62,486 nt of DNA from positions 1-62,486 of the forward strand of contig JAFULL010000047.1 in the NCBI GenBank assembly GCA_017473345.1. Direction: 5' to 3'. The position numbers and the translations under genes are program-made. Below the pieces are notes generated by a model. That model searched no databases and had not been told where the DNA came from. It saw only the letters and a list, made by a program, of their open reading frames with translations. Positions 5,443 through 47,189 of this stretch are shown here, piece after piece. Numbering within the stretch: the first letter of the stretch is position 1; every line of letters begins with the position of its first letter. Origin of the DNA: Clostridia bacterium. GTDB lineage: Bacteria; Bacillota; Clostridia; Christensenellales; Aristaeellaceae.

Positions 5443-6948
5443 ATGTCTGCATTTGAAACCGCCCGCGCGAGCCTGATGTGGGACGCCACGCCCGTATCCA
5501 ACGCCTTTTTATGCGAATTTATGCCCGCCGCGCCGGAAGGACATGTGAAGGTGTATCTTTACGGACTGATGTGGGCGCGCAGCGGCTTTTCCGACGGCAC
5601 CGACCAGTTGGAGGACATGAGCCAGGTGCTGGGCATGGATCGTGATGAGATCGAACGCGCCCTGCGCTACTGGGAGCGCTGCCGTCTGGTGGAGCGCATT
5701 CAGGACCTGCCTCCGCGCTACCGCTTTGTAAGCGTGCCCATGGTGCACCTGCAGCGCGAGCAGCTGCCCCACGACGACGATTACGAAGCCTTTGCCCAGG
5801 CGGTGTATGCGGCCTTCGGCGACCGGCGCAAGCTGCACGGCGGCGAAACGGTGCTGGCCTTTGAATGGGTGGAGCAGTACAAATTGCCTGCCGAGGTGGT
5901 GCTGATGCTCATCCAGCACATGATCGCTACCCGCGGCGTGAAGTTCAGCTTCAAGGAGGCCGAAAAGGTCGCCATCGACCTGTGTGAGGAAAAGGCCTTT
6001 ACCGTGGAGGCCGCCGAGGCTTACTTTAACCGTTCCGCAGCCGCCAAAAAGGGCGCGCGCAAGGTGCTGACCCATCTGGGCCTCAAGCGTTCCCCCACCA
6101 ATGACGAAATGGATCTTTACAGCAAGTGGACTATTGACTGGGGCTTTAACCCCGACGCCATCCGTGAAGCCTGCAAGGAGCTTACCAAGATCGCCAACCC
6201 GAACTTCGGCTATCTGGACAAGGTGCTGGAAGGCCTGCGCAGCCGCAGCACCACCAAAACCCTTACCGACCGTCATGTGCAGCAAACGCTGCAGGGCGAT
6301 CAGGCCGAGATCATGCAGGTGCGAGAATTTCTGCAGACGCTTGGCATTTCCATGGCCGTGGTCGATGAAGGCCTGCGTCTGCAGTACAATGCCATGGCGC
6401 GCGAGGGAGGTCACGAGCTGGTGATGCTGGCTGCGCGCGAGGTGGTCACCCACAGCAAGGTTCACACCATCGACAATGTGGCAAAACTGCTGGATTCCTG
6501 GGCCAAGCAGGGCATTGTGAGCGTGGAGGGCGCAAACGCCTATCTGGCCGAGGTGGAAGACCTCAATGCGCAGATCCGCGACCTGATGAAGATCGCTTCT
6601 GCGCAGGGCGGCTGCACGCTGCTCAACCGCAGCTATCTGAAGCAGTGGCAGAGCGAATGGCGCATGCCGCAGGCGCTCATCGAGCTGGCGGCCCAGCTTT
6701 CTCGCGGAAAGACCAAACCCATGCAGTACATGCACGCTTTGCTTTCCGGCTGGCACGACGAAAGCATTGCCAACGTTGAAGAAGCCCTTGCTGCGCATAC
6801 GCGCCGCGTTTCCCAGCCGCAGGACGCAAAGTCCGCCGCCCCTGCTGCAAAGCGCGTGGTGGAGCAGCAGTACGAGCAGCGTTCCTACGATCCGTCCGAA
6901 TATGACGACATCACCCCCGAACAGCTTGAGGAGATGACGAAGCTATGA
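5443..6948 (+). CDS. DnaD-domain primosomal protein
   Basis: 501 residues. Members of the DnaD/DnaB family remodel origin DNA and help bring the helicase loader to the chromosome in Bacillota. An N-terminal winged-helix-like region (GLMWARSGFSDGTDQLEDMSQVLGMD, about residues 35-95) is followed by a first DnaD-like segment around 135-200 and a second around 225-280, which ends in ANPNFGYLDKVLEGL. Start MSAFETARASL is chosen because AAAGGAG lies upstream and a longer frame would begin before the promoter. It overlaps the helicase-loader gene by 4 nt, which supports a role in replication initiation. Confidence 0.88.
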   Translation: MSAFETARASLMWDATPVSNAFLCEFMPAAPEGHVKVYLYGLMWARSGFSDGTDQLEDMSQVLGMDRDEIERALRYWERCRLVERIQDLPPRYRFVSVPMVHLQREQLPHDDDYEAFAQAVYAAFGDRRKLHGGETVLAFEWVEQYKLPAEVVLMLIQHMIATRGVKFSFKEAEKVAIDLCEEKAFTVEAAEAYFNRSAAAKKGARKVLTHLGLKRSPTNDEMDLYSKWTIDWGFNPDAIREACKELTKIANPNFGYLDKVLEGLRSRSTTKTLTDRHVQQTLQGDQAEIMQVREFLQTLGISMAVVDEGLRLQYNAMAREGGHELVMLAAREVVTHSKVHTIDNVAKLLDSWAKQGIVSVEGANAYLAEVEDLNAQIRDLMKIASAQGGCTLLNRSYLKQWQSEWRMPQALIELAAQLSRGKTKPMQYMHALLSGWHDESIANVEEALAAHTRRVSQPQDAKSAAPAAKRVVEQQYEQRSYDPSEYDDITPEQLEEMTKL

Positions 6949-7943
6949 CCAGCGAACAGATTTTGCTGCAGCTGCATCAGGAATATGCCCGCAGGCGCGA
7001 GGACAACATGCTGCTGTTTGAGCAGCGTCAGGCGCAGGCCTGCGAGCAATGCCCCGGCCTGCGTGAGCTGATCACCGCGCGCCACACCGCCGTGATGGCC
7101 GGCGTGCGCGCCACGCTGCTCAATGCCCGCAAGGATGGCGGCGCAGCCTCCGGCATGGCGCAGCGCATGGCTGACATGAACCGTCAGATCACCGACAAGC
7201 TCACTCAGCACGGTCTGCCGCAGGACTATCTGCAGCCCATCTACACCTGTCCCGATTGCCGCGATGAGGGTTACATTTACGATCCTTCCCGCCGCATGTG
7301 CGACTGTCTGCGCAAGGCCTTCAATCAGCGCCTGCTGCAGGAAAGCGGCATTGCCGGCGACATGCACACCTTTGCCGATTTTGACGAAACGCTCTTTTCT
7401 GACGAAACCGACGAGCGCGGCCTGAGCCAGCGCAAAGCCGCCGTTGCCATCCGCAACGTATGCGAAGCCTATGCCGACAGCTTCCCCGCCACGCCCGTGC
7501 GCGACCTGCTGCTGATGGGCAAAAGCGGCCTTGGCAAGACCTTCATGCTGCAGTGCATCGCCCACCGTGTGGCGCAGCGCGGCCATCTGCCCACCTGTAC
7601 CAGCGCCTACCGTCTGTTTGAGCTGGCGCGCCGTGCCTATATGGAAAATGACTCTTCCATCCTCGCGCCCATGATGGATGCGCCGCTCCTGCTCATCGAC
7701 GATCTGGGCACCGAGCCCCTCATGAACAACGTGACCGTCACCCAGTTGTTTAACCTCCTCAACGAGCGTCAGCTGGCCGGCCGTCACACCGTCATCAGCA
7801 CCAACCTCACCATGAGCGAGCTGCAGGAGCGCTACACCGAGCGCGTCACCTCCCGCTTCCTCGACGCCACCGGCTGCCGCAGGCTGCTATTCATCGGCGG
7901 CGACATTCGCCGCAACCTCAAACGGAAGGCGGACAACGCATGA
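6945..7943 (+). CDS. DnaI/DnaC-type helicase loader ATPase
   Basis: 332 residues; an AAA+ ATPase expected to load the replicative helicase. The N-terminal half holds a zinc-binding motif (YTCPDCRDEGYI...MCDCLRKAF, about residues 100-125) typical of clostridial DnaC/DnaI homologues. The C-terminal AAA+ core has Walker A GKSGLGKT, Walker B LLIDDLGTE and the sensor segment TNLTMSELQERYTERVTSRF. ATGA overlap with the dnaD-like gene before it (6945-6948) and with the ArsC-like gene after it (7940-7943): all three are translationally coupled. Confidence 0.92.
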   Translation: MTSEQILLQLHQEYARRREDNMLLFEQRQAQACEQCPGLRELITARHTAVMAGVRATLLNARKDGGAASGMAQRMADMNRQITDKLTQHGLPQDYLQPIYTCPDCRDEGYIYDPSRRMCDCLRKAFNQRLLQESGIAGDMHTFADFDETLFSDETDERGLSQRKAAVAIRNVCEAYADSFPATPVRDLLLMGKSGLGKTFMLQCIAHRVAQRGHLPTCTSAYRLFELARRAYMENDSSILAPMMDAPLLLIDDLGTEPLMNNVTVTQLFNLLNERQLAGRHTVISTNLTMSELQERYTERVTSRFLDATGCRRLLFIGGDIRRNLKRKADNA

Positions 7944-8290
7944 ACATTCAAATTTACGTCAGCAAAAAGAACCCCGACGTGCTCAAAGCCGAGCGCTTTT
8001 TCAAGGAGCGCCGCATTCCCTATCAGCTGATGGACCTCAAAAAGCACAAGCTGGGCCAAAAAGAGCTGGACACCTTCATCCGCGCCGTTGGTGCGCAGGC
8101 GCTTGTTGACCGTGAAGGCAAGAAAGCTCTCGAGCGTCCTGTCGCCCACATGAGCGACGAACGCTACATCGCCGCCGCCCTTCTGGACGATCCCTCCGCC
8201 CTGCGCACCCCCATCGTACGCAACGGCGCAAAAGTCACCGTCGGCGCAGACGAGGAGACCTGGAAAAAGTGGGTCGAAGACGCGAAGTAA
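7940..8290 (+). CDS. ArsC/Spx-fold protein lacking the catalytic cysteine
   Basis: 116 residues of thioredoxin-like ArsC/YffB type: beta strand QIYVSKKNPDVLKAERFF, then LGQKELDTFIRAVG, and RTPIVRNGAKVTVG, which matches the conserved RxPIVxxG segment. The N-terminal Cys of arsenate reductases and the CxxC of Spx are both missing; KNPD stands in their place. Oxidoreductase activity is therefore unlikely, and a binding or regulatory role is more plausible. It is the last gene of the dnaD-dnaI unit, coupled by a 4-nt overlap. Confidence 0.8.
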   Translation: MNIQIYVSKKNPDVLKAERFFKERRIPYQLMDLKKHKLGQKELDTFIRAVGAQALVDREGKKALERPVAHMSDERYIAAALLDDPSALRTPIVRNGAKVTVGADEETWKKWVEDAK

Positions 8291-8388
8291 GGGGGGGAAG
8301 ACGACGTTGGGAGGCGCTGCCTCCCACGCCCACCGCTCAAGGGCTGTCGCCCTTGAGAATCCCACCATTAGGACAAGGGTTCCTTTTT
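8291..8388 (+). repeat. Intergenic element with two GC-rich hairpins
   Basis: Two perfect inverted repeats in tandem: GGGAGGC gct GCCTCCC (8309-8325) and CTCAAGGGC tgtc GCCCTTGAG (8336-8357), then AATCCCACC. From general familiarity this two-hairpin form resembles dispersed intergenic repeats in GC-rich Clostridia, but only this one copy is in the window. Confidence 0.45.
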
Positions 8389-8412
8389 AGACAGCGGAAG
8401 CTGTCTTTTTTG
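8389..8412 (+). terminator. Terminator of the dnaD-dnaI-arsC-like operon
   Basis: AGACAGC ggaa GCTGTCT then a T run, between the plus-strand operon and the convergent methyltransferase gene. Confidence 0.82.
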
Positions 8413-9195
8413 TTACCTTTTTCTGTGCACATCCAGTATATGGTGTGTTGCGCCGGCCATGTCGACCCGTTCACAGATGGAAAAATGGTACTGCAGGTAC
8501 AGCTCGTACAGTTCGTCGCTCATCTCTTCAATCTGTTGGCGCATGAAATTTGTTGCCATGTCCGTGCCGACGTAGTGCAGCCGCTGTGTATGAAAATGGT
8601 TCATCAGTTCCTCGATATCTTCACGGCGGTACAGCTGGAACAATTCCTGCGGGTCAGAACGCGCCTTGAATGTGACCGGGTCGACAAGGGCGCGATAGTG
8701 GGGCTCCATCAGCATGCCGCGGCCGAAGCAGTACTGTACCATGGTTGCGTCATTGTTGCAGTAGGCTGCAAACAATATACCGCCGGTTTTGGTAACGCGC
8801 AGCGCTTCGCTTAATGCCTGCAACTGTTCACTCTGGTTCATCAGGTGGTACATAGGCCCCAGCAGCAGGGTAATATCATACTGTTCATCCGCAAAAGCGG
8901 ACAGATCAACAGCATTTCCCTGGGTGATGGTGATGTTTTCGCCGGAGTGGGTATTTTGCTGGAACAGTGCGATATTATGTTCCAGCAGTTCTACTGCATC
9001 CACCTGATATCCCATGCGTGCCAGCGCATGGCTGTAGCGCCCTGTAGCTGCGCCAATTTCAAGAATGCGCATGCCGGGCCGCAGATAGCGCTGAATATAC
9101 CGCATGGTGGTCAGGTATTCCACCTGACCGTAACGGGTGAGCAGGCGGCCGTCTTCGTCGTAGTTTTCATAAAACTGTTTGAGTACTTCATACAT
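8413..9195 (-). CDS. Class I SAM-dependent methyltransferase
   Basis: 260 residues of Rossmann-like methyltransferase. Motif I is RILEIGAATGRYSHAL (residues about 43-58), motif II is VDAVELLEHNI, and the post-II strand is YDITLLLGPMYHL. Substrate is not predictable; it belongs to the general Methyltransf_25 type. Ribosome site AAAGGGTG. Transcription from the gene upstream must pass the strong hairpin at 9224-9267, so it may have its own weak promoter or depend on read-through. Confidence 0.86.
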   Translation of the reverse strand: MYEVLKQFYENYDEDGRLLTRYGQVEYLTTMRYIQRYLRPGMRILEIGAATGRYSHALARMGYQVDAVELLEHNIALFQQNTHSGENITITQGNAVDLSAFADEQYDITLLLGPMYHLMNQSEQLQALSEALRVTKTGGILFAAYCNNDATMVQYCFGRGMLMEPHYRALVDPVTFKARSDPQELFQLYRREDIEELMNHFHTQRLHYVGTDMATNFMRQQIEEMSDELYELYLQYHFSICERVDMAGATHHILDVHRKR

Positions 9196-20090: not shown

Positions 20091-20921
20091 GTGTTTTTCA
20101 AAAGAACGACGGCAGTGGTACTTGCCCTGCTGCTTTTGTTTTCTGCCGCATCGGCCCAGCCGTATGAGGGGCTGCGCGTGCTGCTCATCGGCGTGGATGC
20201 GCGTTCCGCCGATCAGCCCGGGCGCAGCGACGCCATGATGCTTGCGCAGATCAGCCCAAGCGGAGAGGTGCGGCTGGCGTCATTTCTGCGCGACCTGTAC
20301 GTTTCCATTCCCGGGCATGGAAAAAACCGGCTGAACGCCGCCTATTTCTACGGCGGCGAGGACTTGCTGAAGCAAACGTTCGAAAAAAACTTCGGCATTA
20401 CGGTCGACCGCACGGTGACGGTGGATTTCTCTGTGCTTTCGGATCTGGTGGATGAACTGGGCGGCGTGCAGGTCGACATCACGCAGGCCGAACTCGCCTA
20501 TCTGAACCAGCTGCTGAAGGATCATGGCCGTGAGACTATGGCAGATGCCGGGCTGCAGCGGCTGGACGGGTTTCAGGCGCTGTGCTACAGCCGTCTGCGC
20601 AAGCTGGATGGCGATTTCCAGCGCACCTCGCGCCAGCATACGCTGATCGCCGCCATGCTTCAGCAGATGGCGCAGCTGGACCGCTGGACGCTTTTGAAGC
20701 TAGCGGTCAAAAACATCAGCCGTGTGCAGACGGATCTGTCTCTGGGTGACCTTACGCAGCTTGCTCCGCTCATTGCAAAGCTGGACGAAGCTGTCATCCG
20801 TACGGCGCATGTTCCCTTTGAAGGCGCTTTTTCAGAAGAAACGGTCAATGGCATGATGGTACTTTCCCCCGACCTGAAGCGCTGCCGCGCGCGGCTGGAG
20901 GCATTCCTCACAGAAGAATAA
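20091..20921 (+). CDS. LytR-CpsA-Psr (LCP) family protein
   Basis: 276 residues from a GTG placed by AAGGAGGGG 4 nt upstream. LCP proteins transfer polyprenyl-linked polymers such as wall teichoic acid or capsule onto peptidoglycan, outside the membrane. N-terminal signal/anchor (TTAVVLALLLLFSAASAQ). LCP core: VLLIGVDARSADQPGRSDAMM, LASFLRDLYVSIPGHGKNRLNAAYFYGG, FSVLSDLVDELGGVQVDI, GFQALCYSRLRKLDGDFQRTSRQ, with the conserved D and R residues that bind pyrophosphate and lipid. It precedes the first NAGPA/Lgt-like pair, suggesting a shared envelope-polymer role. Confidence 0.92.
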   Translation: MFFKRTTAVVLALLLLFSAASAQPYEGLRVLLIGVDARSADQPGRSDAMMLAQISPSGEVRLASFLRDLYVSIPGHGKNRLNAAYFYGGEDLLKQTFEKNFGITVDRTVTVDFSVLSDLVDELGGVQVDITQAELAYLNQLLKDHGRETMADAGLQRLDGFQALCYSRLRKLDGDFQRTSRQHTLIAAMLQQMAQLDRWTLLKLAVKNISRVQTDLSLGDLTQLAPLIAKLDEAVIRTAHVPFEGAFSEETVNGMMVLSPDLKRCRARLEAFLTEE

Positions 20922-20950: not shown

Positions 20951-21049
20951 GGTGTTCGTGCATGTCATACTATGGACTTTTTGCAAGAAAAATGGTATAT
21001 TGATTGATGTTTGACCATTTACGCCAAAAGGCTGGAAGGTAGTGTGACC

Positions 21050-21934
21050 ATGTTTCAGAATTTCAAGCGGCTGGCTGCGTGCCTGTGCGTTCTTTTGACC
21101 CTGAGCAGCTGCGCCTGCGCCGGTGAGATCGTTCCCCTGCCGGTGGATGATTCCCCCGCGCAGCCTGTGAATGAAAGCTATTATATCGACGGCACGCATT
21201 ACGAAGATCCCAGCCTGAGCATCTCCATTGAGACCTATCCCTGGGAGCAGACGGTGTGCTATGTGGCCCGCATCCGCATTGCTGACCCGAGCCAGCTTCG
21301 CAGCGCTTCCGCCTACGGCTTCAACCGCAAGCAGGTGGCGTCCGTCAAGGATATGGCCAACCGCATGAACGCGGTGCTGGCCATCAATGGCGACTACTGC
21401 TATTACCAGTTGTCCACCGTGGGTTCCTATCTGGTGCGTCAGGGCCGGGTGTATGCCGAACGCATGGCTGATGGCCGCGACATGCTGCTCATCGACGCCA
21501 ACGGCGACTTTACCATCGTGCAGGACTGCAGCCATGAAAAGCTGGCGCAGTACAGCGATCTGTCGCTCATCAACACCTTCAGCTTCGGCCCCGGTTTGAT
21601 CGTTAATGGTCAGCCGCTTGCAGAAAACTACCGCGCATCGTTCAACGGCTCGCTGGAACGCCACCAGCGCGCTGCCATCGCGCAGGTCAAGAAGGGCGAG
21701 CTGGAATACATCTGCGCCGTCAGCGAAGGTGACCGCGAGTCCAAGGACGGCGGTCTTACCCTGCACGAGTGGGCGGCTTTCCTGAACACCCTGAACGTGG
21801 AAAACGCCTACAACCTCGACGGCGGCAACTCCACGGCCATCATCTTCCACAATGAGAAGATCAACGCAGTCCAGAACCGTCACCATCGCAAGCTCAGCGA
21901 TATCATCTATTTTGCCAGCGCCTATCAGGAGTGA
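21050..21934 (+). CDS. Exported phosphodiester glycosidase (NAGPA domain), copy 1
   Basis: 294 residues. The NAGPA/DUF2233 family removes a sugar from a sugar-phosphodiester, as in the mammalian uncovering enzyme; bacterial members act on envelope glycans or phosphodiester-linked sugars. Signal peptide with a lipobox-like LSSC (residues about 17-20), suggesting a lipoprotein. Core motifs: AVLAINGDYCYYQ, GSYLVRQGRVY, NTFSFGPGLIVNGQPL, AYNLDGGNSTAIIFHN and terminal IIYFASAYQE. Start at the ATG preceded by GGAAGG. The Lgt-like gene begins 4 nt after its stop. Paralogue of 46167-47186. Confidence 0.85.
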   Translation: MFQNFKRLAACLCVLLTLSSCACAGEIVPLPVDDSPAQPVNESYYIDGTHYEDPSLSISIETYPWEQTVCYVARIRIADPSQLRSASAYGFNRKQVASVKDMANRMNAVLAINGDYCYYQLSTVGSYLVRQGRVYAERMADGRDMLLIDANGDFTIVQDCSHEKLAQYSDLSLINTFSFGPGLIVNGQPLAENYRASFNGSLERHQRAAIAQVKKGELEYICAVSEGDRESKDGGLTLHEWAAFLNTLNVENAYNLDGGNSTAIIFHNEKINAVQNRHHRKLSDIIYFASAYQE

Positions 21935-21938
21935 TTGA

Positions 21939-22826
21939 ATGACAACCTTCCCCTACATGGCAGCCGCAGTGCTCGCCGCGCTTGTCACGACTGTACTGCT
22001 GATTCTGTCCGCCATTCGCAGCCGTCTGGGCTGGAAGAGTGGCGTATGGATGAGTCTTTTGTCGCTGGTGTTTTGCATTGCCGGTGCAAGGCTTTATTAC
22101 ATCCTGACCTGCGACCTGATGGGTGCAGGCTTCTTCGGCCCGCTCTTCCCTGTGGATCCTTATTCCTACGCCTTCAGCGGCGGTATTCTTGGTTTCATTG
22201 CAGCTGCCGCGCTGACTGCCCGGCTGACAAACCAGCCTTTTGCCTGCATTGCTGACGCGTTTGTGCCCGCCGGTCTTTTCGGCGCTGCGCTGCTGCGCCT
22301 TGCCGAGGCGTTTTCCGACTTTGGCTGGGGCGACATGCTGGACGCCGCATGGCTGCAGCGTTATCCCTTTGCCATTCAGAACATGTACGGCGAATGGTGC
22401 GCCGCCGTGTTCAACCTGGAGGCGCTCTGTGCACTGGCCGTGCTGGTTTATGTACTGATCCGCAAGCTGCCAGGACATCGTCTTTCCATTGCGCTCCTCT
22501 GGTGGGCTGCCTCGCAGATCTTCTGCGAAAGCCTGCGCGTGGAGTCCATCCAGTGGGGCTTTGTGCGCATGCAGCAGCTGACCAGCGCCCTCATCATCGC
22601 TGCCGTCATGCTGGTTGCCCTGTGCCGTCGCCATGCGCTGCGCAAAAGCCTTGTGCACTGGCTTATCTTTGCCGCATGCGTCGGCGTAGTCATCTTCGTG
22701 GAATATGCCATTGACAAAATGCCCTGGGCAACATGGATCGATTACGTGGCCATGGCTGCCGCTGTGATCTGCATGGGCTTCAACGCCCAGAAGACGGTGC
22801 TTTTCTCCGATGAGGCTGCCGCATGA
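21939..22826 (+). CDS. Lgt-like multi-pass membrane protein, copy 1
   Basis: 295 residues, about eight membrane helices. The layout resembles prolipoprotein diacylglyceryl transferase: GARLYYI in the first third, SGGILGF, LRLAEAFSDFGWGD where Lgt has its GRIGNFxNxE signature, FAIQNMYGEW, and ESLRVESIQWGFVRMQQLTS near the end where Lgt has FFR...QxLS. Canonical Lgt residues are only partly kept, so this is probably a divergent subfamily with a different acceptor, not the housekeeping enzyme. Sits between the NAGPA gene and the LRR gene (ATGA overlap at 22823). Confidence 0.7.
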   Translation: MTTFPYMAAAVLAALVTTVLLILSAIRSRLGWKSGVWMSLLSLVFCIAGARLYYILTCDLMGAGFFGPLFPVDPYSYAFSGGILGFIAAAALTARLTNQPFACIADAFVPAGLFGAALLRLAEAFSDFGWGDMLDAAWLQRYPFAIQNMYGEWCAAVFNLEALCALAVLVYVLIRKLPGHRLSIALLWWAASQIFCESLRVESIQWGFVRMQQLTSALIIAAVMLVALCRRHALRKSLVHWLIFAACVGVVIFVEYAIDKMPWATWIDYVAMAAAVICMGFNAQKTVLFSDEAAA

Positions 22827-23698
22827 AAAAAGCACTGCTGTTGTTTCTTTTGTGTCTGCTTCTGACCGGCGCTGCCTGTGCCGAAAACGTGGAAGCCTTC
22901 GGCCTGAGCATTGATACAAACGCCACCGTCCTGGACTTTGACGCCGCAGGCGTGCAGGTGGATGACGCACAGGTACTTTCCGCGCTTGTCGAACAGCTGC
23001 CGCAATTGCAGGAAGTGCGGATGTTCGAAAGCAAGCTTCCCCGCAAGGACATGGAGTGGCTGTTTGACACCTATCCGAATGTGTTTTTCGGGTGGACGCT
23101 GCGCTTTGATATTCATACCGTGCGAACCGACGCCACAGCATTTTCCACGCTGCACCGCAGCCAGATCACCAACAAGCGTGACGATTACCACACCACGAAC
23201 GAGCTGAGCCAGCTGCGCATGTGCACGCGTCTCAAGGCGCTGGACCTGGGTCACAACAAGCTGACTGATCTCAGCTTCCTCAGCGGTCTTACCGAACTGC
23301 GCGTGCTGATCATCAGCCCCAATTACGGCATCACCGATCTGACGCCGCTTTCGGCACTGACCAATCTGGAATATTTGGAAGCCTTCAGCACCAACGTCAC
23401 AGATGTGTCGCCGCTTTCATCACTGGCAAACCTTCGCGATCTGAACCTGTCCTGCAGCGACCAGCTGCGCGATATCTCTCCGCTGTACGATCTGCCTGCG
23501 CTGGAACGCTTCTGGTGCGGCCGCAGCAAAATCCCTGATGAACAGGTGCAAGCCGTGCGTGAGCTTCATCCCGACTGTCATGTGGATGATGAAAGCCTGC
23601 CCACCCGCGGCGGCTGGCGCGAACATCCTCATTATGACGTGATCTACGCCATGTTCCGTGCGGGCGAATACACGCCTTTTGAACCGTACATATATTAA
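22823..23698 (+). CDS. Exported leucine-rich repeat protein
   Basis: 291 residues. Signal peptide KKALLLFLLCLLLTGAACA, with a Cys near the cleavage site but a poor lipobox. About five SDS22/internalin-type LRRs of 22-24 residues span residues 125-235 (LKALDLGHNKLTDLSFLSGL, LEYLEAFSTNVTDVSPLSSL and so on). The N-terminal part lacks repeats; the C-terminal 45 residues are His/Tyr/Pro-rich. No sortase signal. LRRs suggest protein or glycan binding at the surface. Overlaps the Lgt-like gene by 4 nt. Confidence 0.84.
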   Translation: MKKALLLFLLCLLLTGAACAENVEAFGLSIDTNATVLDFDAAGVQVDDAQVLSALVEQLPQLQEVRMFESKLPRKDMEWLFDTYPNVFFGWTLRFDIHTVRTDATAFSTLHRSQITNKRDDYHTTNELSQLRMCTRLKALDLGHNKLTDLSFLSGLTELRVLIISPNYGITDLTPLSALTNLEYLEAFSTNVTDVSPLSSLANLRDLNLSCSDQLRDISPLYDLPALERFWCGRSKIPDEQVQAVRELHPDCHVDDESLPTRGGWREHPHYDVIYAMFRAGEYTPFEPYIY

Positions 23699-23700
23699 AC

Positions 23701-23735
23701 AAGCCACGCCATTTCATCCGGCGTGGCTTGTTTTT
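23701..23735. terminator. Terminator between LRR gene and GH gene (convergent)
   Basis: AAGCCACGCC atttcatcc GGCGTGGCTT then gTTTTT on the plus strand. Confidence 0.85.
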
Positions 23736-29051: not shown

Positions 29052-32000
29052 TTAACCCTTCTGTTTTTTGCGCTTGTTCAGGATGAACAGCAGCAGCAAT
29101 CCCAGCCCGCATCCGCCGGTTACACCCAGCGCGATGTAGAGCGGGTCGCCAGTCTTGGCGATTGTGTCAGGAATGCTGTCCAGTTCGAAGGGAATGCCCA
29201 TATCCAGGCATGCAGGCATGTCGAACACGGTAATCGTGATGCGTACAGGTTCGCCGTAGGCGTTGCGCTCGCGCACATCCACCTTGCCGCTGATGGTTAC
29301 GGTTTCTTCCCTGCCGGCGATTTCAAGGGTGATCGCACAGCTGAAGCTGCCGTCCTTTCCGGGCTTGAGATAGGTGGCGCCTGTGTTGAGCAGATACTGG
29401 CCGTCAACGCTGCCCACCGGACCGATCTGCAGATGATCCAGATCGGCGATGAAGCCTTCCTGCGCGTCGCCGTAAACCGTTTGCTTCACATAGCGTCCGT
29501 CATACTTTGCACTGTACTTGCCGTCCTTAACAGCAACGGAGCCGAAGCGGTTGCGGTACGTGGTATTTTCCACCGCGATGGTGGGCAGGAACTGCACCTC
29601 CACGCGCGTCTTGTACGGCATGCCGCTGGGGTCTTTGGCAAGGGTCAGCCTGCGGGTACCGTCTTCAAGCACCTGCAGCGCGGCATCGGGATACACAGCC
29701 CGCAGTGCGGACAGATCGCTGATATCTGCCACCGTGATGGTCTGGAAAGTTTCAGCGCCATGGTCCTGATAACGCACGGTGAAACCGGCGTCATGCATCC
29801 ATTCGCCTTCGTTCTTCCAGGACACATACAGCTTGCTTGCAATGTAGGGATCGATATCGCGAATCGTCGCTCCGTTTTCCGCCACGCCCACGAAGCCGCC
29901 TGCATTGGTCAGGCCTGGGTTTGCCGCGTTGGCCGTTACGTTGTCGATCTCCAGCAGGCAGGACAGTTCGTTGAGAATATCCTCAGCCACAAGCATATCC
30001 TGCTGCGTGCCGGGAGCAGTGGGCACGGTGTCCACCTCGGTGCGGTAACCGCTGACGTACTCCTCCTTCACGGTGTAAACCGCCTCGGTCAGAGCAGGCA
30101 CGCCGTCCTTCACCTCAGGCACGTATTTGGGCAGCTGACCGGTCACATAGTTCCAGACATTGCTGTCGGCTGCATCTACCTCAAAGGTGATCTGCGGCTG
30201 CGGCACAAGCGGTTTGCCGTTGGCCAGAATGATCAGCTTGATCTGTTCAGGACGTACGCCGTACTGGTTATCCCAGTCGCTCCACAGCTTGCGGCCGCTC
30301 AGGATGAGCGAATCAAGCGTGTTGGTCAGGGTGGATTGACCGGTCTGGGCTGCTTTGTAGCCATTGGGAACCTCATGTTCCACAGCACGGTACAGCAGCT
30401 TTTTGCCGTCTGCATCCACTTCGGGCAGGTCTTCAAAGGTGCCGCTCCACTGGTTGGCTTCGTCAAGCGTGAGGGTGAGCACCTTGCCGGAAGAATCCTT
30501 CACGTCCTGCCAGGCCGTCGGGTTATCCTCCGCCGTGCTTTGCAGCGTGACGATCAGTTCCGCCGGGCGGATGCCGTAGCGGTTGTCCTCGTCCACCCAA
30601 ACTTTTGTTACGGGATGAGTGGTGAGCTTCAGCGTGTTGTCGACCGTGACAACGTTGTTTTCGAGCACATAGGAATCCTCATAGCCGTTGGCCATATCCT
30701 TTTCAACAACACGGTAGGAAACCGGTTTGGCGGTGCCGCCTTCCAGGATATGCGTCGGCAGGTTGAGCCAGCTGAAGCCGTATGTGCTGCCGGCGGGAAC
30801 CACTGTGCCGTTGTACTGATCAACCCTGAGTGTCTGCGCCGTCCTGTCGGCTGCAACGCCTACCGCTGCGCCTGCGGGCTGCCAGCTGGTGTCGTTATCC
30901 GGCGTAAGGGTATACTGCAGTTCCAGCGTTACCTCTGCAGGACGGTAGCCGGTCCAGTCGTGCTGCACGTCGGTGATGTTGTCATCAGTCCACTTTTTGA
31001 TTGCATGGCGTTCCAGCGTAGTCACGGTGTTGGCAAGCGTCAGCACCGGAACCTCAGCGTCAGCGTCCATGTTGCCGGCATAGCCATCCGCAGGCAGCTT
31101 GTTGGAGATGCCGCTGCTTTCGTAGCCGTCAGGAATGATCTCCTTTACGAAATAGGTGTATTCCCTGCCGGATACGTCATACGCAGGCAGGCCGGAAACG
31201 CTGATGGTCCACACGTCGTCGGCCGCTTCAGCTTCCGGCTTGACCCAGGTAAGGGCAACGCCGTTCACCTTTTCAGCAGCATTCTCATCGATGGTATAAC
31301 GCCACAGTTCCACCTGCAAGTCAGCCGGACGGATGAGACTGAAGAGCTCGCCATCCTTCCAGTTTTTCTCAATGGTGAGCCGGAAGGGTTTGAGGGTGTT
31401 GGTCAGCAGCACTTCAGCCGTATTTGCGACGGCGAGTTCGTGTTCGTTCTGTGCACCGCCGGTCGCGCCGGATGTGCCGGACACAAGCGCCTGCGTGGGC
31501 GTGTAGCGGTCGGCTTCGGCTTCGTCAGCGTACACCTCGCGCACATAGTACATATACTGGCTGCGCGTCCCGCTTACAAGCTCGCCTGTTTCGGTTCCAA
31601 GGCCGGTATGCGTGGGAAGATTGTCCCAGGTATACAGTGTGTCAGGCTGCGCGTTGGTCTGCGTGGCCACCAGTTCGTCTGAATCATCCTCGCCGTCGAT
31701 CCTGCGCCAGAGTTGCAGATCGATCACAGGCAAATCGTCTTCGTCAGCCGTATCGCCCACCCATGTTTTCTGAGCAGTGATGCTGATGGGCAGGAACGTG
31801 TTGGTGATCTCATGCGTATCACCATTGAGCGTACTGAACAGATCTGCCGTTTTGACGTAGCCGTCGGGGATATGCGCCTGCTTTTCGACAACACGATACA
31901 CGATCTTCGTGCCGTTTTTATCACAGACAGGCAGCTTTTCAAAGGTCACTTCGTAGGCAGGGGCAGCAGCCGTCTTCACAACGACGGAACCGTTTTTGCT

Positions 32001-35000
32001 GAGTACGTCAGCAAACTGATCATCCGTCTGGCCTTCCAGTTTCGACTGCAGAGTGAGCGTCACCTTTTCAGGGCGCTGCTCCGATTCGTTTGCGTTGTTT
32101 TCAGGCCACAGTTTCTTCGCCTTTACATCGGTGGTCTTGAGGGTGTTCTTCAGCGTAACGGTGCCCTTGATCTGGTTCTCGCCGCCGACCAGACCACTCG
32201 AGTCTGCATCAATTTCACTCTGGCTGCCATCAAGCGTGTAGCCGGGCATTTCATCTTCGGTGAGGAAATAGGTGTATTCATTGCCCGCCGCGTCGTAGGC
32301 GTCCAGGCCCTCCTCGTAGCTGGACTGCCACATAGTTCCACCCGGATCGGCAGAGGTACCGGTCTCAGTGCTGGTTTTCACCAGTTTGATCTGCTCGCTG
32401 AAGCTGGGGTCAACCGTTTCATTGACTCTGCGCTGCAGCGTAATGGTCAGTTCTTCAGGACGGTCGTAGGCGTAATCTCCCAGCGTGCTGTGATCCCACT
32501 GCTTGACAATCACCAGGCGGATGGGCTGCAGCTTGTTGGTCATGATAACGTCCGCGCTTTCGAGCATGAACAGTTCGCTGGAACCGGTTACGCTTTCGTC
32601 CGTCGTCTGAGTGGTGTAGTAACGGCTGGAGTCAAATGAACTGTCTGTGAAAACCTCCTTGATATAATACACAAACTGGTCGCGCCTGCCGCTGACAACG
32701 CCGTTGGTTTCGCTGCCGGTGCCGCCATAGCGGGGCAGGTGGCTCCACGTATACTTCTTTCCAGCCTCAATGTTTTCAAACGTTCCCACATGCTGGTGCG
32801 CGGCCTCGGGTTTCTCATTCACCTTGCGCCACAGTTCAAGATTGATGTTCGGGCGAATCTCTTCGTTGTCGCCCTCCCACTTCTTGATCACAGAGATCGC
32901 GATCTCATCCAGCTCGTTGGTAATGACAAGCTTTCCGCTTTGCTCAGCAGCAACACCACTGTTGAGCACCTTATAGCCATCAGGCACATTGGCGCTGTGT
33001 TCAATGATGCGGTAGATGACCTGCTGGCCCTTGCTGTACTGCGGCAGGCCCGCGAAGCTCACGGTGTAGTCAGCAGGTTCCGCATTGGCTGTGACCGTGG
33101 TGGAGGCATTGGCCCTCTTCACATCGGTGAACGTGGTTCCTCCATCCACACTCTGCTGCAGCGTCAGCGTGACCTTTGCAGGACGGGTCGCGCTTTCCAG
33201 TTCGGCATTGCCCGCACTCCAAACCTTCACAGCACTGATCTGTGTGGAGGTCAGCGTGTTACGCAGTTCCAGTTCAGGCACGGTATTGCCGCCAATCACA
33301 CTTTCGTCCGCCGTGATCTCATTGGAGGTCAGGCTGCCGGAATAGCCGTTCACGGCCTCCTCGGTGGCATAGTAGGTGTAGGCATTGCCGTTCGCATCGT
33401 ATGCGGGAAGATCCCTTACCTCAACGGACCAGGTGGTCAGGTCGGTCACAGTGGTGCCGTCCTGCTGACCCTCATCGTTGGCCGTAAGGTTCTGGGGGGT
33501 AAGTGTGATGGCCTTTGTGTACTGCTCGTCAACAGCATTGCCCACCTTGCGATGCAGCGTAAGCTCAATGCTTTGCGGCCTCACATACTGGTAATCACCC
33601 AGCGCGCTGTGATCCCATTCCTTGGTCAGAGCCAGCTTGAAGGTACGCAGCGTGTTGGTAACAGTTACAGCGTTCGTGCTGCCGGTAGCTGCAGCATTGC
33701 CGTCGATGCCGGTGGTGGAGTAGTTCACCTTGTAGGTGGGCGTAGTGCCGTTGTTTTCAACCACATTGTCATCAACCACCTCGACCCAGCGGTAGGTATA
33801 GGCATTGCCGTCAGGATCGTAGCAGGGCAGATCGTCCGGATGGTCATACTTCCACTGGTTCGCATCGGACAGTACAGCAGACACAGCGGGCACGTCTGTC
33901 CAGCCCGTATCGGTGCTGATCTTGCGCTGCAGCTTCACGTTCACGCTTGCAGGACGCACGCTGGTGTCGCTATTGGGCTCCACCCAGTTCTTCTGCACGG
34001 TGGTTTTGAGGGTACGCAGCGTGTTGGTGATGCTGCCGCCCTCCGCCACACGATCGGTGGTGGACTGGGTGTAGTTGGTGTCAACAGCGCTACTGAGCAC
34101 CTCCTTGAAAGTATACACATACTTTTCGCCCGTGGAGGTATACTGCGGCAGATACAGTTCGCTGGCCGTAAAGGTACAGGTCCAGGTGTTGTCGCCGTTA
34201 TCCTGCCATGTGATGGAAGCGCCGGTGCCTTCCGTGCCCACCAGCGTGTTGAGCAGTACGGGCTCTTCCGTGCTGCCCTCCACGCCGCGGTAGAACAGAT
34301 AGGCAATGCTCTTAGGCTCGACAGAGCTGGTCGTCGTGGCGGTGCCGATCAGCGGACGATAGGCCTGCAGGTGTGTGGCCGTGTCGCCTGCCCATGCCTT
34401 GGTGGCAGTCAAAGACTGATAGCCTTCGTTGTACTCGTTTTCGACGGCGACGGTCTTTCCATAAGGCGTCTGCTGGCTTTGATGCGCAGCATAGGCTGCG
34501 TCACGATCGCTGCTGTACACCAGATAACTACCGTCATCAGAGGGTTTGACGGGCGTTCCATCCGCATACACCGTGTAACTGCTGGCAATATCATCACCGC
34601 CGTCGATGGTTTCGGTGATGGTATAGGTATACAGCCGTCCGTCAGGCGCAAAGTACGGGAAGTTCGTTGCAGTGCTGCCCTGCGGCCAACTCACGTTCTG
34701 ATGGGTCACATTGGTCCATACAGTGCCGGAGGGGCTGATGGCCGGGTGTTCGTCCGTGTTGATGTCACTTTCATCAATGACCTTGGTCCAGGTGCTCAGT
34801 GCTTCTGTGCCGCCCTTGTAGGTCTGCGTGAGGGTGAAGGTGACCTTGGGCCGTTTGATCTGACCGACGATATCGCCCAGCAAGTGGCCCCAGTCCCAGT
34901 CCTTGTCGATGGTGAACTGCGCCTCATAGCCGCCCGTCAGGGTGTTTTTGATGTTGCGGTTCGTGCCCTCGTCAGCGTAACTGAACGAGTAGTAGGTGAA

Positions 35001-38000
35001 GAACTCGTCTGTGTTGAAGTCGACTTCCTGACCTTCCGGCGGGATGACCTCTTCAACGACCCTGTACTCGTACTCCCGGCCATACACGTCATAGCGTTCC
35101 AGCTTTTTGGTACCCGTGGTCGTTTCCGCCGTCGGGGTATCGGGCGTATACTTTTCAAACAGGTACTGCAGATCCGGCGCGATGAGCGAATCAAACGTTA
35201 CGGTTTCAAATTCTTCGCTGGTATTGATACCCCTGCGCTGAAGGATGATCTTCAAATCAGGCAGATCGCTCATGCTGAAGCCGCTGGGAATGCGCTCCCA
35301 CACCTTGTGTCCGGCAAAGGTGATGGTATCAGCAAGGGTGTTGATGATGGTGCCGCTGGTCATTTCGCTCACATCGGCCAGCGCATAGGATTCCCCGGTG
35401 GCCATTTCCTGGAAGGCTTCCTTCGCATCAGAAGCCGTCTGCTTGGGATACTCCGTGCCATTGTAATAGCTGGTGTTGTACAGCGTGCCTCTCTGGGCAA
35501 TTTCCTCTTCCACAAAGTAGATATACTTGTAACCGTACTCATTGTACAGCGGGAAGCTGCCAAAGTCGCAGTGCCAGTGCCAGCGGTTGTCCGCTTTATC
35601 GGTACTCCAGCCCAGTTCTGCAACATACTGACGATCAGGCTCATCCGGCACGCCGTCGTTATCCCTATCAAGAGAACGATACAGTTTCAGGATGATATCA
35701 GGACGTTTGACGTTGCCGGGATCGCGCCATACCTTGTTGACAAACAGGTTTTTGCTGGATGCCAGCAGGTTGGTAAAGTTGCGGCTGATCGTGTCATTGG
35801 TGTGCTGTTCGCCCACCGTGTGTTCCTGAGTGCCTGCAGAACGGACAATGGGGAAATGCACATCCTCACCGTTAAGTTTAAGGGTAAGGCCCGTAGTGAC
35901 GTCCTGACCGTTGTAGAGGATCTTGCTTTCCTCAACGGTATAGTTGATCAAACATCCCTGATCGTCATACTTGCGCAGCGGACCGGTGGAGCCGTCGCCC
36001 TGCGTATCTACATCCCCTGTATACGGCACATGGATGGAAACGCTGTCTGCCGTTACAGGTTTGTCAATGGTATTGCCTTCCGCATCGACGGTGGTGTAGA
36101 AGTAGCTGGTATAGTTGCTGGCATCGATCTTCACGCCGTTGGCGTAAACGTCGAACACCGCTTCCAGTCCCGTCAGGTTGGGGACCTTCATCATCAAATC
36201 GCCCAGGTACCAGTTCTTGGTTACCTTGACCGTCACATCGCCCACACGGGTGTTGATGATGCGGGTCAGGCTGTCTGCGCCGCTGACACGGCCGGTAAGG
36301 CCCGTCACATAGCCAACAGTATAGTAATGCTCATCGGTTTGAATGATACCAGACTGATTAGGTGTAAATCGATCGATGGAAAGCTCTTTAATGTGATAGT
36401 TTTTCCTCTCTCCCTTGCCCGGATCATCATCCAGTTCATCCGAACTGACATAATGCCTGATCAGGCCCCACCACTGGGTATCCTCATCGATGACGTAGAT
36501 GTCGGTGCTGCCAGTTTCAGGCGTGAGCGAGAAGGTGCTGATGGCATAGGGATTCATGCCCAGCGTGGCAACAACCTCGGGTTCCTGTGTCGCAGGCTTT
36601 GTATAGATCAGCTGCAGGCGCACGGATCCACGGTGTTCTGCATCGCCGTCGTCATTCCATACCTTTTCCACTTCGAAGGGAATCTCAATACCGCCGTTTC
36701 CGGTATGCACATTGAGCAGCGTAGCCGTCTTGGGTGCGTCGACCGGATCGTCGTAGGTAAGGTCCTTGAAGGTATAGTTCAGCGACTTTTCGTCAGCTGC
36801 AGTAACGCTGCAGCTGATCTCTTTGATGTAATAGGTATACAGATAGCCCTCGCTGTCGTAGAGCGGCAGTTTGGTGAGCAGGTAATCAAAGTCACCGCTG
36901 CCCTCAAGCACCAGATTACCGTCGGAGACGGACGCAGTGGCTGTGCCGGACTCATCGCCCAGATAAGTCTGCGTTACCGCAAAGTCTTCTTCAACGGTAT
37001 TCTTTTCAGGGGCGTCGCTGCGGCGCGTCACATGAATGGTAATGGTGCCGGTCGCACCCTCGGGCAGATCGGCATCCCAGTCCTTGACGATGCGCAGCTG
37101 CGTTTCGCCCTTGAGCGTGTTTTTGACCAGCGGCACGCCATCCTGCACATCGTAATCGATGATGAAGGTATGGTCGCCCACGCGGTACTCCTTCTTACCC
37201 TCATTGATCTCTTCGGGGGAAGGTACCGCGCCCGGCTCGCTGGACACCATTTTATTGTTGATGGTCAGCGACATGCCGGTTTCGATGAAACGGTATTCGT
37301 ACATATCGCCCTGTTCATCATACAGCGGCTGATTGGCCTCGGTGAAGGTCAGGGTCATCTTTTCGGAGGTAAAGCCGCCATACACACCGCCGTTTTCACC
37401 AAGATCCACCTTGACCCATTCATCTTCAGAACCGGCCAGCCTGCGCTGCAGTTCAAAGGTAACGGTAGAGTTCATGTCCATGCCCTGAATGGCCGGAGCG
37501 ACGAATTTCTTGGTCACCTTGGGATTGGCGGGATGCTCCAGCTTGTTGGTCACAACAGCGTTGTTGAATACATACTGCGTGCCGCCTGCCGTATCCTTAA
37601 CGCCCTCCGGCAGCGTGCCGTTGTTGATGTAGCTCTTGTAATGACCGGTGGGGATCAGGCTTTCGTATGCGTAATAAACATACTCATGTCCGTTTTCATC
37701 ATAGCGGTCCAGCACAACAGGATTGCCGCTGGCATCCTTCAGCTGCACTTCTTCGCTGTTGATGATATTGCCATTCCCATCCTTGAGCTTCTCGCTGCCG
37801 GGGATCACCAGCACCGATACACCGGGCACAGGCGACAACGCCGACACGTCATGACCGCGGTCCACCGCAAAACGGAACAGGCGGAACTCCACCTTGGGAC
37901 GCTCGGTGTATTCTTCATCCAGCCAGTTCTTGGTGATCTGGAAAGTGGTGGTGCCCTTCAGGGTACTTTCGATCTCGCCGTTGTTGTACACTCTGGAGGT

Positions 38001-44420: not shown

Positions 44421-44510
44421 GGTCATACGCTCCTTCAGCATCATATTGGGAAGCTGGCTTTTTGACAAAAAAGGCAAAAGACAGCATGTTTAGACAAACT
44501 ACCAATTTAT

Positions 44511-44586: not shown

Positions 44587-44617
44587 GGCTGCAGCAAACG
44601 CTGAAAGGAGAGCCTAT

Positions 44618-46166: not shown

Positions 46167-47186
46167 ATGTCCAAACTGCTCAGCCGAATGCTGACCGTGC
46201 TTTCCCTCGTGCTGGCCCTGTCCCTCATGTTTGCCATCCCCTCCGGTGCCATCACTGAGGACGCCCAGACACGCTATTTCGACGCCCTGTGGGAGGAAGA
46301 GGAGGACTTCTTTGACGAAGAGGCCCGCCGCGAACCCATTGCCGTGATCGCCAACGCTGTTTTCAGCGACATTCTGCCCGCTGCCAATGTATCCGCCCTT
46401 GACGGCGACCTGTTCGCCCCCGGCAGCACCCCCATTGCAGAAAACTTCACCGAAAACGGCTACCGTGACGAAACCATCATTGTGGAGATGGATAAGCAGC
46501 GCATGTATGACAGCGACGTATTCATCGCCTATGTCAAGATCGCCACGCCCTCCCAGATCCGCACGGCGGTCGCCGGCAAGAAAATGGGTTCTTCCAGCAC
46601 CAACCATACGTCTGTCATTTCCAAAAACTACAACGGCATTGTAGCCATCAATGGCGACTACTACACCAAGACCAAGGCTGGCTACATCGTGCGCATGGGC
46701 AAGACCTACCGCGAGAAGACCAGCAAAAACATGGACCTGCTGCTTATCGACGAACTGGGTGATTTCCACATCATTCCCCGCGGCCACGACGTGCAGGAGG
46801 AAGGCATCGCCGTGTTCAAGTCCGAGCATGAGATCGTCAACGGTTTCTTCTTTGGACCCGGCCTTGTGATCGACGGTGAAAAGCAGGAGATCCCTGAAGG
46901 CTATCAGTTTGACCCCCATCAGAAGAACCCCCGCGCCGGCATCGCCCAGCTGGGTACGCTGACCTATGCGCTGGTGGTGGTCAATGGTCGAACCAACGAT
47001 TCCGAGGGCGTGACCATGGCCGAGTTTGCCGACATCATGAGCGAGCTTGGCGCAGTGCAGGCCTACAACCTCGACGGCGGCAACAGCGCCACCCTGGCTT
47101 TCAACGGCGAGGTCTATAACGACAAGCCGCAGGCAGAGCGTTCTGTGACGGACGTCATTTACTTTGCCAGCGCGATCGGAGAATAA
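46167..47186 (+). CDS. Exported phosphodiester glycosidase (NAGPA domain), copy 2
   Basis: 339 residues. Signal peptide (LSRMLTVLSLVLALSLMFAIPSGA, signal peptidase I type, no lipobox), then an acidic linker (EEEEDFFDEEARR), then the NAGPA domain: IVAINGDYYTKT, GYIVRMGKTYREK, GFFFGPGLVIDGEKQ, ARAGIAQLG-like segment, AYNLDGGNSATLAFN and a C-terminal VIYFASAIGE nearly identical to copy 1 (21050). Differs from copy 1 in lacking the lipoprotein Cys. Lgt-like gene starts 3 nt after its stop. Substrate unknown; envelope glycan phosphodiester is the family-based guess. Confidence 0.86.
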   Translation: MSKLLSRMLTVLSLVLALSLMFAIPSGAITEDAQTRYFDALWEEEEDFFDEEARREPIAVIANAVFSDILPAANVSALDGDLFAPGSTPIAENFTENGYRDETIIVEMDKQRMYDSDVFIAYVKIATPSQIRTAVAGKKMGSSSTNHTSVISKNYNGIVAINGDYYTKTKAGYIVRMGKTYREKTSKNMDLLLIDELGDFHIIPRGHDVQEEGIAVFKSEHEIVNGFFFGPGLVIDGEKQEIPEGYQFDPHQKNPRAGIAQLGTLTYALVVVNGRTNDSEGVTMAEFADIMSELGAVQAYNLDGGNSATLAFNGEVYNDKPQAERSVTDVIYFASAIGE

Positions 47187-47189
47187 ACC

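What the first reader, a model, noticed from the sequence alone, without database searches (positions are those of the whole stretch)
21050..22826. Duplicated NAGPA + Lgt-like gene pair: possible undescribed envelope-modification module (copy 1, beside an LCP ligase)
The sequence shows an exported NAGPA-domain protein followed 4 nt later by an eight-helix protein that resembles Lgt in layout but replaces the Lgt signature by LRLAEAFSDFGWGD. The same pair recurs at 46167-48134 in an unrelated operon. Known: NAGPA enzymes cleave sugar-phosphodiesters and LCP proteins attach polymers to the wall. Inference: the pair makes or trims a phosphodiester-linked sugar or lipid group on an envelope polymer, the membrane protein acting as transferase and the NAGPA protein as editor.
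Basis: partly seen in the sequence, partly recalled or inferred. Interest (0 to 1): 0.78.

Follow-up and report, generated by a model that had tools for sequence, protein, structure and literature searches.

The report
Remodelled Lgt plus phosphodiester-glycosidase gene pair
In one family of bacteria, an altered relative of the enzyme that puts fat anchors on proteins nearly always sits beside a secreted enzyme of a kind that cuts sugars off phosphate; what this gene pair does appears to be undescribed and is probably surface-sugar chemistry.

The parts
21050..21934 (+). NAGPA-domain secreted protein, copy 1 (294 aa; N-terminal signal-like helix, phosphodiester glycosidase domain residues 107-288)
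   Evidence: Pfam PF09992 92.3 bits; AF2 pLDDT 91.1 and Foldseek matches to NAGPA/UCE and DUF2233 structures
21939..22826 (+). Lgt-like membrane protein, copy 1 (295 aa, nine predicted helices)
   Evidence: PF01790 53.7 bits; below the TIGR00544 lgt equivalog cut-off (41 vs 118.9); AF2 pLDDT 94.3, best PDB match 5azb
22293..22334 (+). codons for LRLAEAFSDFGWGD: R120 = E. coli R143 kept, E123 in place of N146, G131 = G154
   Evidence: alignment of 145 paralogs and 42 canonical Lgt
22515..22517 (+). codon for Q193, in place of Arg239 of E. coli Lgt
   Evidence: R239 role from PMC4728403 (passages)
22629..22823 (+). C-terminal extension with the last two predicted helices (234-260, 265-294) and paralog-specific E255, Y/F256, Y269
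   Evidence: C-terminal profile A4
22823..23698 (+). secreted leucine-rich-repeat protein, probable third gene of the unit (4-nt overlap)
   Evidence: PF12799 70 bits; two relatives found in this 65%-complete draft genome (itself and one on C76), both next to a NAGPA gene or pair
23698..23735 (+). 13-bp inverted repeat plus T run, likely terminator closing the three-gene unit (read by eye; its 9-nt loop is beyond the limit of the scan, which does not list it)
   Evidence: sequence
20091..20921 (+). LCP-family protein upstream; neighbour of copy 1, not a conserved member of the module
   Evidence: PF03816 116.4 bits; rare near other pairs
46167..47186 (+). NAGPA-domain secreted protein, copy 2 (339 aa)
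   Evidence: PF09992 104 bits
47190..48134 (+). Lgt-like membrane protein, copy 2 (314 aa; LRFGEQFTDLGVG, Q at the R239 position)
   Evidence: PF01790 86 bits

Best explanation
An outer-face envelope-glycan module of two paired proteins. SHOWN computationally: a secreted NAGPA-fold protein with its family motifs is encoded in tandem with (so probably co-transcribed with), and co-evolves with, a membrane protein of the Lgt fold. That fold's active-site pocket is rebuilt (N146 to E, R239 to Q) but strongly conserved, so it looks repurposed rather than decaying. INFERRED: the Lgt-fold protein binds a phospholipid-type substrate in the outer leaflet, and NAGPA cleaves the bond between a sugar and phosphate (its known chemistry) on that lipid-linked sugar. 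The donor is most likely a polyprenyl-phosphate sugar: in one clade of pairs a GT2-GtrA fusion, the enzyme type that makes polyprenyl-phosphate sugars together with the presumed flippase, lies upstream, and no GT-C glycosyltransferase was detected beside it. The pair would then either pass the sugar to an envelope acceptor (a two-protein substitute for the GT-C enzyme of three-component systems) or hydrolyse it to remove or recycle it. Different paralog pairs would serve different sugars or acceptors, some together with a surface LRR protein.
For: NAGPA directly upstream in 122 of 139 paralogs, plus 2 directly downstream, versus 0 of 36 canonical Lgt (9 of the 36 from the same family). NAGPA and Lgt-like distances correlate at r 0.705 for 79 pairs in 27 multi-copy genomes; shuffling partners within genomes gave mean 0.081, max 0.299, 0 of 2000 reaching it. 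Paralog profile hit at E <= 1e-10 in 74 of 120 family genomes; a close NAGPA match (E <= 1e-70) in 71 of those 74 and in 2 of the other 46 (my reading of the tables). Residue pattern in 145 paralogs: R143 133, E146 131, Q239 127, E243 133, R246 130; the 42 canonical have N146 and R239 by definition of the class. Fold matches to Lgt and to NAGPA. GT2-GtrA fusion upstream in 15 of 98 pairs with >= 2 kb in view, from 15 genomes. In those 15 loci 84 other non-overlapping ORFs were in view, 6 of them polytopic by a simple rule; none of the 6 matched a GT-C family in Pfam. The own genome has a GT2-GtrA fusion 44-47% identical to those on contig C2. Secretion-signal-like N-terminus, by a simple rule, in 118 of 122 paired NAGPAs.
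Against: The GT2-GtrA link is seen in 15 of 98 pairs, in one clade, and at neither window copy. No activity, substrate or complex is shown for any member. NAGPA's known reaction is hydrolysis, not transfer. The window's copy 1 has no glycosyltransferase next to it in the ORFs listed. A GT-C enzyme could be encoded elsewhere in these genomes, or be of a kind Pfam misses. Transfer by an Lgt-fold/NAGPA pair has no precedent that I found. I could not model the two proteins together.
Confidence: 0.4

Rival explanations
1. The Lgt-like protein is no longer an enzyme. It is a lipid-binding membrane anchor or scaffold that holds the secreted NAGPA (and perhaps the LRR protein) at the membrane; NAGPA alone is the catalyst.
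For: Loss of R239 and E151, which the Lgt crystal paper reports as intolerant to mutation (PMC4728403, passages). Paired NAGPAs have signal-like N-termini but rarely a lipobox (6 of 122), while the third NAGPA of this genome, without an Lgt-like neighbour, carries its own peptidoglycan-binding domain (one case). Cognate pairs co-evolve.
Against: The pocket positions are strongly conserved with new residues (E146, Q239) next to old ones (R143, E243, R246), which is unusual for a mere anchor. A nine-helix protein is a costly anchor.
Confidence: 0.25
2. One reading: the pair makes or trims a phosphodiester-linked sugar or lipid on a polymer that the neighbouring LCP protein attaches to the wall.
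For: An LCP gene (20091-20921) lies just upstream of copy 1. NAGPA chemistry fits phosphodiester-linked polymers (own knowledge; fold).
Against: LCP recurs in only 6 of the 122 pair loci, on mixed strands, though flanks were of limited length; none was seen beside copy 2.
Confidence: 0.12
3. A second, dedicated lipoprotein diacylglyceryl transferase that lipidates its neighbour.
For: Same fold; PF01790 hit in 40 of 40 members of alignment A1.
Against: R239 and N146 replaced; the lgt equivalog cut-off TIGR00544 is met by neither window copy; lipobox-like site in only 6 of 122 paired NAGPAs and 3 of 40 LRR proteins (simple rule); a canonical Lgt is present.
Confidence: 0.07
4. A competition or surface-variation system: the pair and its LRR partner diversify as an offensive or protective surface device.
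For: Several divergent copies in many genomes; LRR neighbours; NAGPA is reported in predicted conflict proteins with a lipid-acting TelC domain (PMC12419801, passages).
Against: No PADLOC hit for the six proteins scanned; no toxin-delivery domain among the neighbours that I scanned.
Confidence: 0.06

Closest known systems
Prolipoprotein diacylglyceryl transferase (Lgt, PF01790; E. coli Lgt 5azb)
   Different: R239 to Q, N146 to E, signature GRxGNFxNGE lost, C-terminal extension added; both window copies below the lgt equivalog cut-off; genes paired with NAGPA
NAGPA / uncovering enzyme / DUF2233 (PF09992; 6pky, 6u11, 3ohg)
   Same: Domain over cut-off, same fold, shared A-x-N-G and N-L-D-G-G-x-S motifs
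   Different: Own conserved N-terminal region (Y-x-D-x-S-I ... P-S-Q-L-R-T) and an Lgt-fold partner gene; substrate unknown
Three-component glycosylation systems (GtrA/GtrB/GT-C; CsbB-GtcA-YfhO)
   Same: In 15 of 98 pairs a GT2-GtrA fusion lies upstream of the pair; polytopic membrane protein plus an outer-face catalytic domain
   Different: NAGPA + Lgt-fold protein stands where a GT-C enzyme would be; most pairs, including both in the window, have no GT2-GtrA fusion in view
TelC + NAGPA two-enzyme proteins of spore-forming Bacillota (PMC12419801, passages)
   Same: NAGPA combined with a lipid-acting partner
   Different: TelC is a Lipocone domain within large proteins, not an Lgt-fold partner gene

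Membership tests
Lgt (diacylglyceryl transferase) | PF01790 over the gathering score | tested here: met
   53.7 and 86 bits vs 24.9 for the window copies; 40 of 40 members of A1 hit at E <= 0.01
Lgt (diacylglyceryl transferase) | Lgt fold | tested here: met
Lgt (diacylglyceryl transferase) | lgt equivalog cut-off TIGR00544 (118.9 bits) | tested here: not met
   41 and 64.3 bits
Lgt (diacylglyceryl transferase) | Arg239 | tested here: not met
   Q in both window copies and in 127 of 145 paralogs
Lgt (diacylglyceryl transferase) | Signature GRxGNFxNGExxG incl. N146, E151 | tested here: not met
   E at 146 in 131 of 145; E151 kept in 9 of 145
Lgt (diacylglyceryl transferase) | Arg143 | tested here: met
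   133 of 145
Lgt (diacylglyceryl transferase) | Transfers diacylglyceryl to lipobox Cys | not testable with these tools
   needs complementation or assay
NAGPA phosphodiester glycosidase | PF09992 over the gathering score and NAGPA fold | tested here: met
   92.3 and 104 bits vs 25; for copy 1 Foldseek 6u11, 6pky, 3ohg at E 1e-13 to 1e-12
NAGPA phosphodiester glycosidase | Conserved N-G and DGGxS motifs | tested here: met
   D115, D257, G258, G259, S261 invariant in 34; same motifs in PDB relatives
NAGPA phosphodiester glycosidase | Hydrolyses sugar-1-phosphodiesters | not testable with these tools
   no assay
Three-component glycosylation system | Polyprenyl-phosphate GT2 plus GtrA encoded with the outer-face enzyme | tested here: inconclusive
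   15 of 98 pairs; not beside either window copy; a homologous fusion lies elsewhere in the genome, C2
Three-component glycosylation system | GT-C fold third component | tested here: inconclusive
   none of the 6 polytopic ORFs among 84 other ORFs of the 15 GT2 loci matched a GT-C family; Pfam of A1 gave GT87 in 1 of 40, E 0.0045; the rest of the genomes was not searched
LCP-linked wall polymer module | LCP gene conserved beside the pair | tested here: not met
   6 of 122 pair loci, mixed strands, flanks of limited length

The most novel reading that the evidence does not exclude
A new kind of outer-face glycan enzyme: an Lgt-fold membrane protein, stripped of diacylglyceryl-transfer residues and given a new acid (at 146) and amide (at 239), holds a polyprenyl-phosphate sugar, and its secreted NAGPA partner cuts the sugar-phosphate bond and hands the sugar to envelope acceptors. 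This would be a two-protein replacement for GT-C glycosyltransferases that has radiated into several specificities within one bacterial family.
Probability: 0.25. Interest if true: 0.85.

Novelty: new variant of a known kind. Interest (0 to 1): 0.62.

Why it matters
Lgt is treated as a single-function family and a drug target. A domain-level annotation would call members of this paralog group 'prolipoprotein diacylglyceryl transferase' (40 of 40 scanned hit PF01790), which is very likely wrong. A tightly coupled, co-evolving partnership between an Lgt fold and a phosphodiester glycosidase gives a genetic handle on what bacterial NAGPA proteins do, and the GT2-GtrA loci name a testable substrate class.

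Tried and rejected

Classification: (C-terminal-profile threshold) called two canonical genes paralogs (L093, L179); (higher threshold) put two paralogs (L086, L090) among the canonical, which is why it shows 2 of 38 'canonical' with NAGPA. One search uses the seven-residue canonical signature and is the one I quote. One hit (L190, 6779-7612, a degraded Lgt-like ORF) was dropped before the counts. ORFs sharing their last 150 residues were counted once.

The 17 paralogs without NAGPA directly upstream: 2 have it directly downstream (L101, L074); a third, L079, also has one downstream that my rule missed because its predicted start overlaps the Lgt-like gene by 304 nt, and another 1.5 kb upstream; 3 have it 0.7-1.2 kb upstream (L041, L053, L112), in L053 with a CapA-type gene between; 4 have one 1.2-3.7 kb downstream (L098, L069, L192, and L189 on the other strand); 7 have none in view. 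Not all paralogs share the swap: 26 of 145 lack the E146 + Q239 combination.

Limits: fetched loci favour the best-scoring matches; the last 40 came largely from further down the list. Weak hits of profile A4 can be canonical Lgt (L179, E 6.6e-9), so I counted only E <= 1e-10. '82 genomes of paralogs' counts named loci separately and is an upper bound. NAGPA profile A2 was built from paired proteins of these genomes, so the 71/74 vs 2/46 contrast is partly circular. ORF starts were not curated; the signal-peptide and lipobox rules are my own simple ones. Structures: single proteins only. The promoter-like site 20973-21001 is no more than chance (1 found, 1.2 expected). That window copy 2 belongs with the GT2-linked clade holds in the Lgt tree (support 0.851) but not in the NAGPA tree. 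Das 2013 on DUF2233 is not held and is not used.

Full report
WHAT IS THERE. The window is contig C18 of a 2.4 Mb, 65% complete draft genome. Of the 21 named loci, 4 titles name a gut site (sheep rectum and rumen, water buffalo cecum, water deer rectum); the others do not say. Copy 1 looks like a three-gene unit: NAGPA (21050-21934), Lgt-like (21939-22826), LRR protein (22823-23698), then an inverted repeat with a T run. Copy 2 is NAGPA (46167-47186) and Lgt-like (47190-48134), whose stop overlaps an ATG at 48131 of an ORF that reads by eye like a DNA methyltransferase. A canonical Lgt sits on C4. A third NAGPA gene, on C76, lies beside the only other LRR relative found in this draft and carries a peptidoglycan-binding domain.

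IT IS A CONSERVED MODULE. I searched 120 genomes of the family, fetched loci, and classed 187 Lgt-family ORFs by the canonical signature: 42 canonical, 145 paralogs. With at least 1.2 kb upstream in view, 122 of 139 paralogs have NAGPA directly upstream on the same strand (within 300 nt; 91 of 122 within 30 nt; median 5 nt) and 2 more directly downstream; none of 36 canonical genes has one on either side. Partners co-evolve: distance correlation 0.757 over 120 pairs (permutation maximum 0.128), and 0.705 for the 79 pairs in genomes with several, against at most 0.299 when partners are shuffled within genomes. So each NAGPA tends to keep its own Lgt-like partner through duplication. An LRR relative lay within 3 kb of 37 of 140 ORFs classed as paralogs and of 0 of 36 others, though flanks were often short. 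In 60 paralogs with long flanks on both sides it was 18 within 4 kb.

IT IS RESTRICTED IN THE SAMPLES. The C-terminal part of the paralogs (profile A4) gave full-length hits in only one of 398 genomes of the phylum, the window's own; two others matched only columns 2-38 and 2-39 of 105. In 200 genomes of the order 13 hit, all in this family; one of the 13 (L179) is a canonical Lgt by signature. In the family 102 of 120 genomes hit at E <= 1e-4, 74 of them at E <= 1e-10, with up to 7 matches per genome.

WHAT THE SECRETED PROTEIN IS. A NAGPA-fold protein (pLDDT 91.1; matches to UCE and DUF2233 structures) with invariant D115, R207, D257-G-G and S261 among 34 aligned, a signal-like N-terminus in 118 of 122 and a lipobox-like site in 6 of 122 (simple rules).

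WHAT IT WORKS WITH. Recurrent neighbours of the 122 pairs were sought without prior choice: a cluster of 15 loci whose representative has CapA (PF09587) and DUF6273 domains; a glycosyltransferase (10 loci in that clustering; 15 by search) whose representative is a GT2-GtrA fusion (PF00535 47.4 bits, PF04138 33.2 bits); and a protein before it whose representative has an M1-peptidase domain. GT2-GtrA lies upstream of the pair in all 15 loci, directly or within about 2 kb, and the order M1-like, GT2-GtrA, NAGPA, Lgt-like is seen in 7 of the 15. Among pairs with 2 kb upstream in view this is 15 of 98. Those 15 loci hold 84 other non-overlapping ORFs of 90 aa or more; 6 look polytopic, and Pfam calls them MntP, MMPL, a sub-threshold acyltransferase match, a chance-level competence match, and nothing for two: no GT-C family. 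The 15 GT2-linked Lgt-like proteins fall in a clade of 21 (support 0.851), which also holds window copy 2; the matching NAGPA clade of 18 (support 0.773) does not include it. The own genome has a homologous GT2-GtrA fusion (44-47% identity) on C2, beside an ORF that by eye resembles the M1-like protein. Published systems are described so: a GtrB-type enzyme makes undecaprenyl-phosphate sugar, GtrA is the presumed flippase, and a GT-C enzyme adds the sugar outside (PMC11127046 and PMC7389260, passages).

MECHANISM. NAGPA's known bond (sugar-phosphate diester) is the bond in polyprenyl-phosphate sugars, and the Lgt fold holds lipid at the outer face. I therefore think the pair acts on a sugar-phosphate-lipid there, with the sugar either handed to an acceptor or removed. 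Everything beyond the pairing, fold, residues and neighbours is inference.

IS IT KNOWN. In the open PMC library no paper holds both 'diacylglyceryl transferase' and 'phosphodiester glycosidase', and the listings of searches showed no description of this pair. The closest precedent seen is NAGPA joined to TelC (PMC12419801, passages). Most subscription papers are outside that library.

Noticed in passing
window 29052-44477 (-) and 44615-45514 (+): A 5141-aa ORF with long EPTA repeats, many similar repeats and a C-terminal sorting-signal-like end (IAKTGD + helix, by eye), next to a sortase (PF04203, 43.5 bits).
   Followed up: no
L102 (G000:C76), 6168-8447: Third NAGPA of the genome carries a PG_binding_1 domain and lies next to the only other LRR relative found, without an Lgt-like gene in the stretch.
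   Followed up: partly
L190 6779-7612, L193 1797-2528, L198 6778-7524, L209 1603-2499: In one genus a further, much degraded Lgt-like membrane protein (PF01790 below cut-off in three of four, not listed for the fourth) sits between GT2-GtrA and NAGPA.
   Followed up: partly
L053 5058-6248, L098 6279-7406, L207 1276-3504: CapA-type (PGA_cap, PF09587) proteins, one with DUF6273, recur beside the pairs; in L053 one lies between NAGPA and the Lgt-like gene.
   Followed up: partly
L062 7936-9201: A PIG-L (GlcNAc-PI de-N-acetylase) domain protein near two NAGPA-Lgt-like pairs; its cluster recurs in 5 loci of 4 genomes.
   Followed up: no
L042 3174-3995, L050 3213-4037, L097 6483-7313: A similar gene (GNAT domain in L042) directly follows these Lgt-like genes, two of which (L050, L097) have no NAGPA in view.
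   Followed up: no
L190 1469-3526 (-): A 685-aa polytopic protein with a sub-threshold acyltransferase match overlaps the end of the Lgt-like gene.
   Followed up: partly
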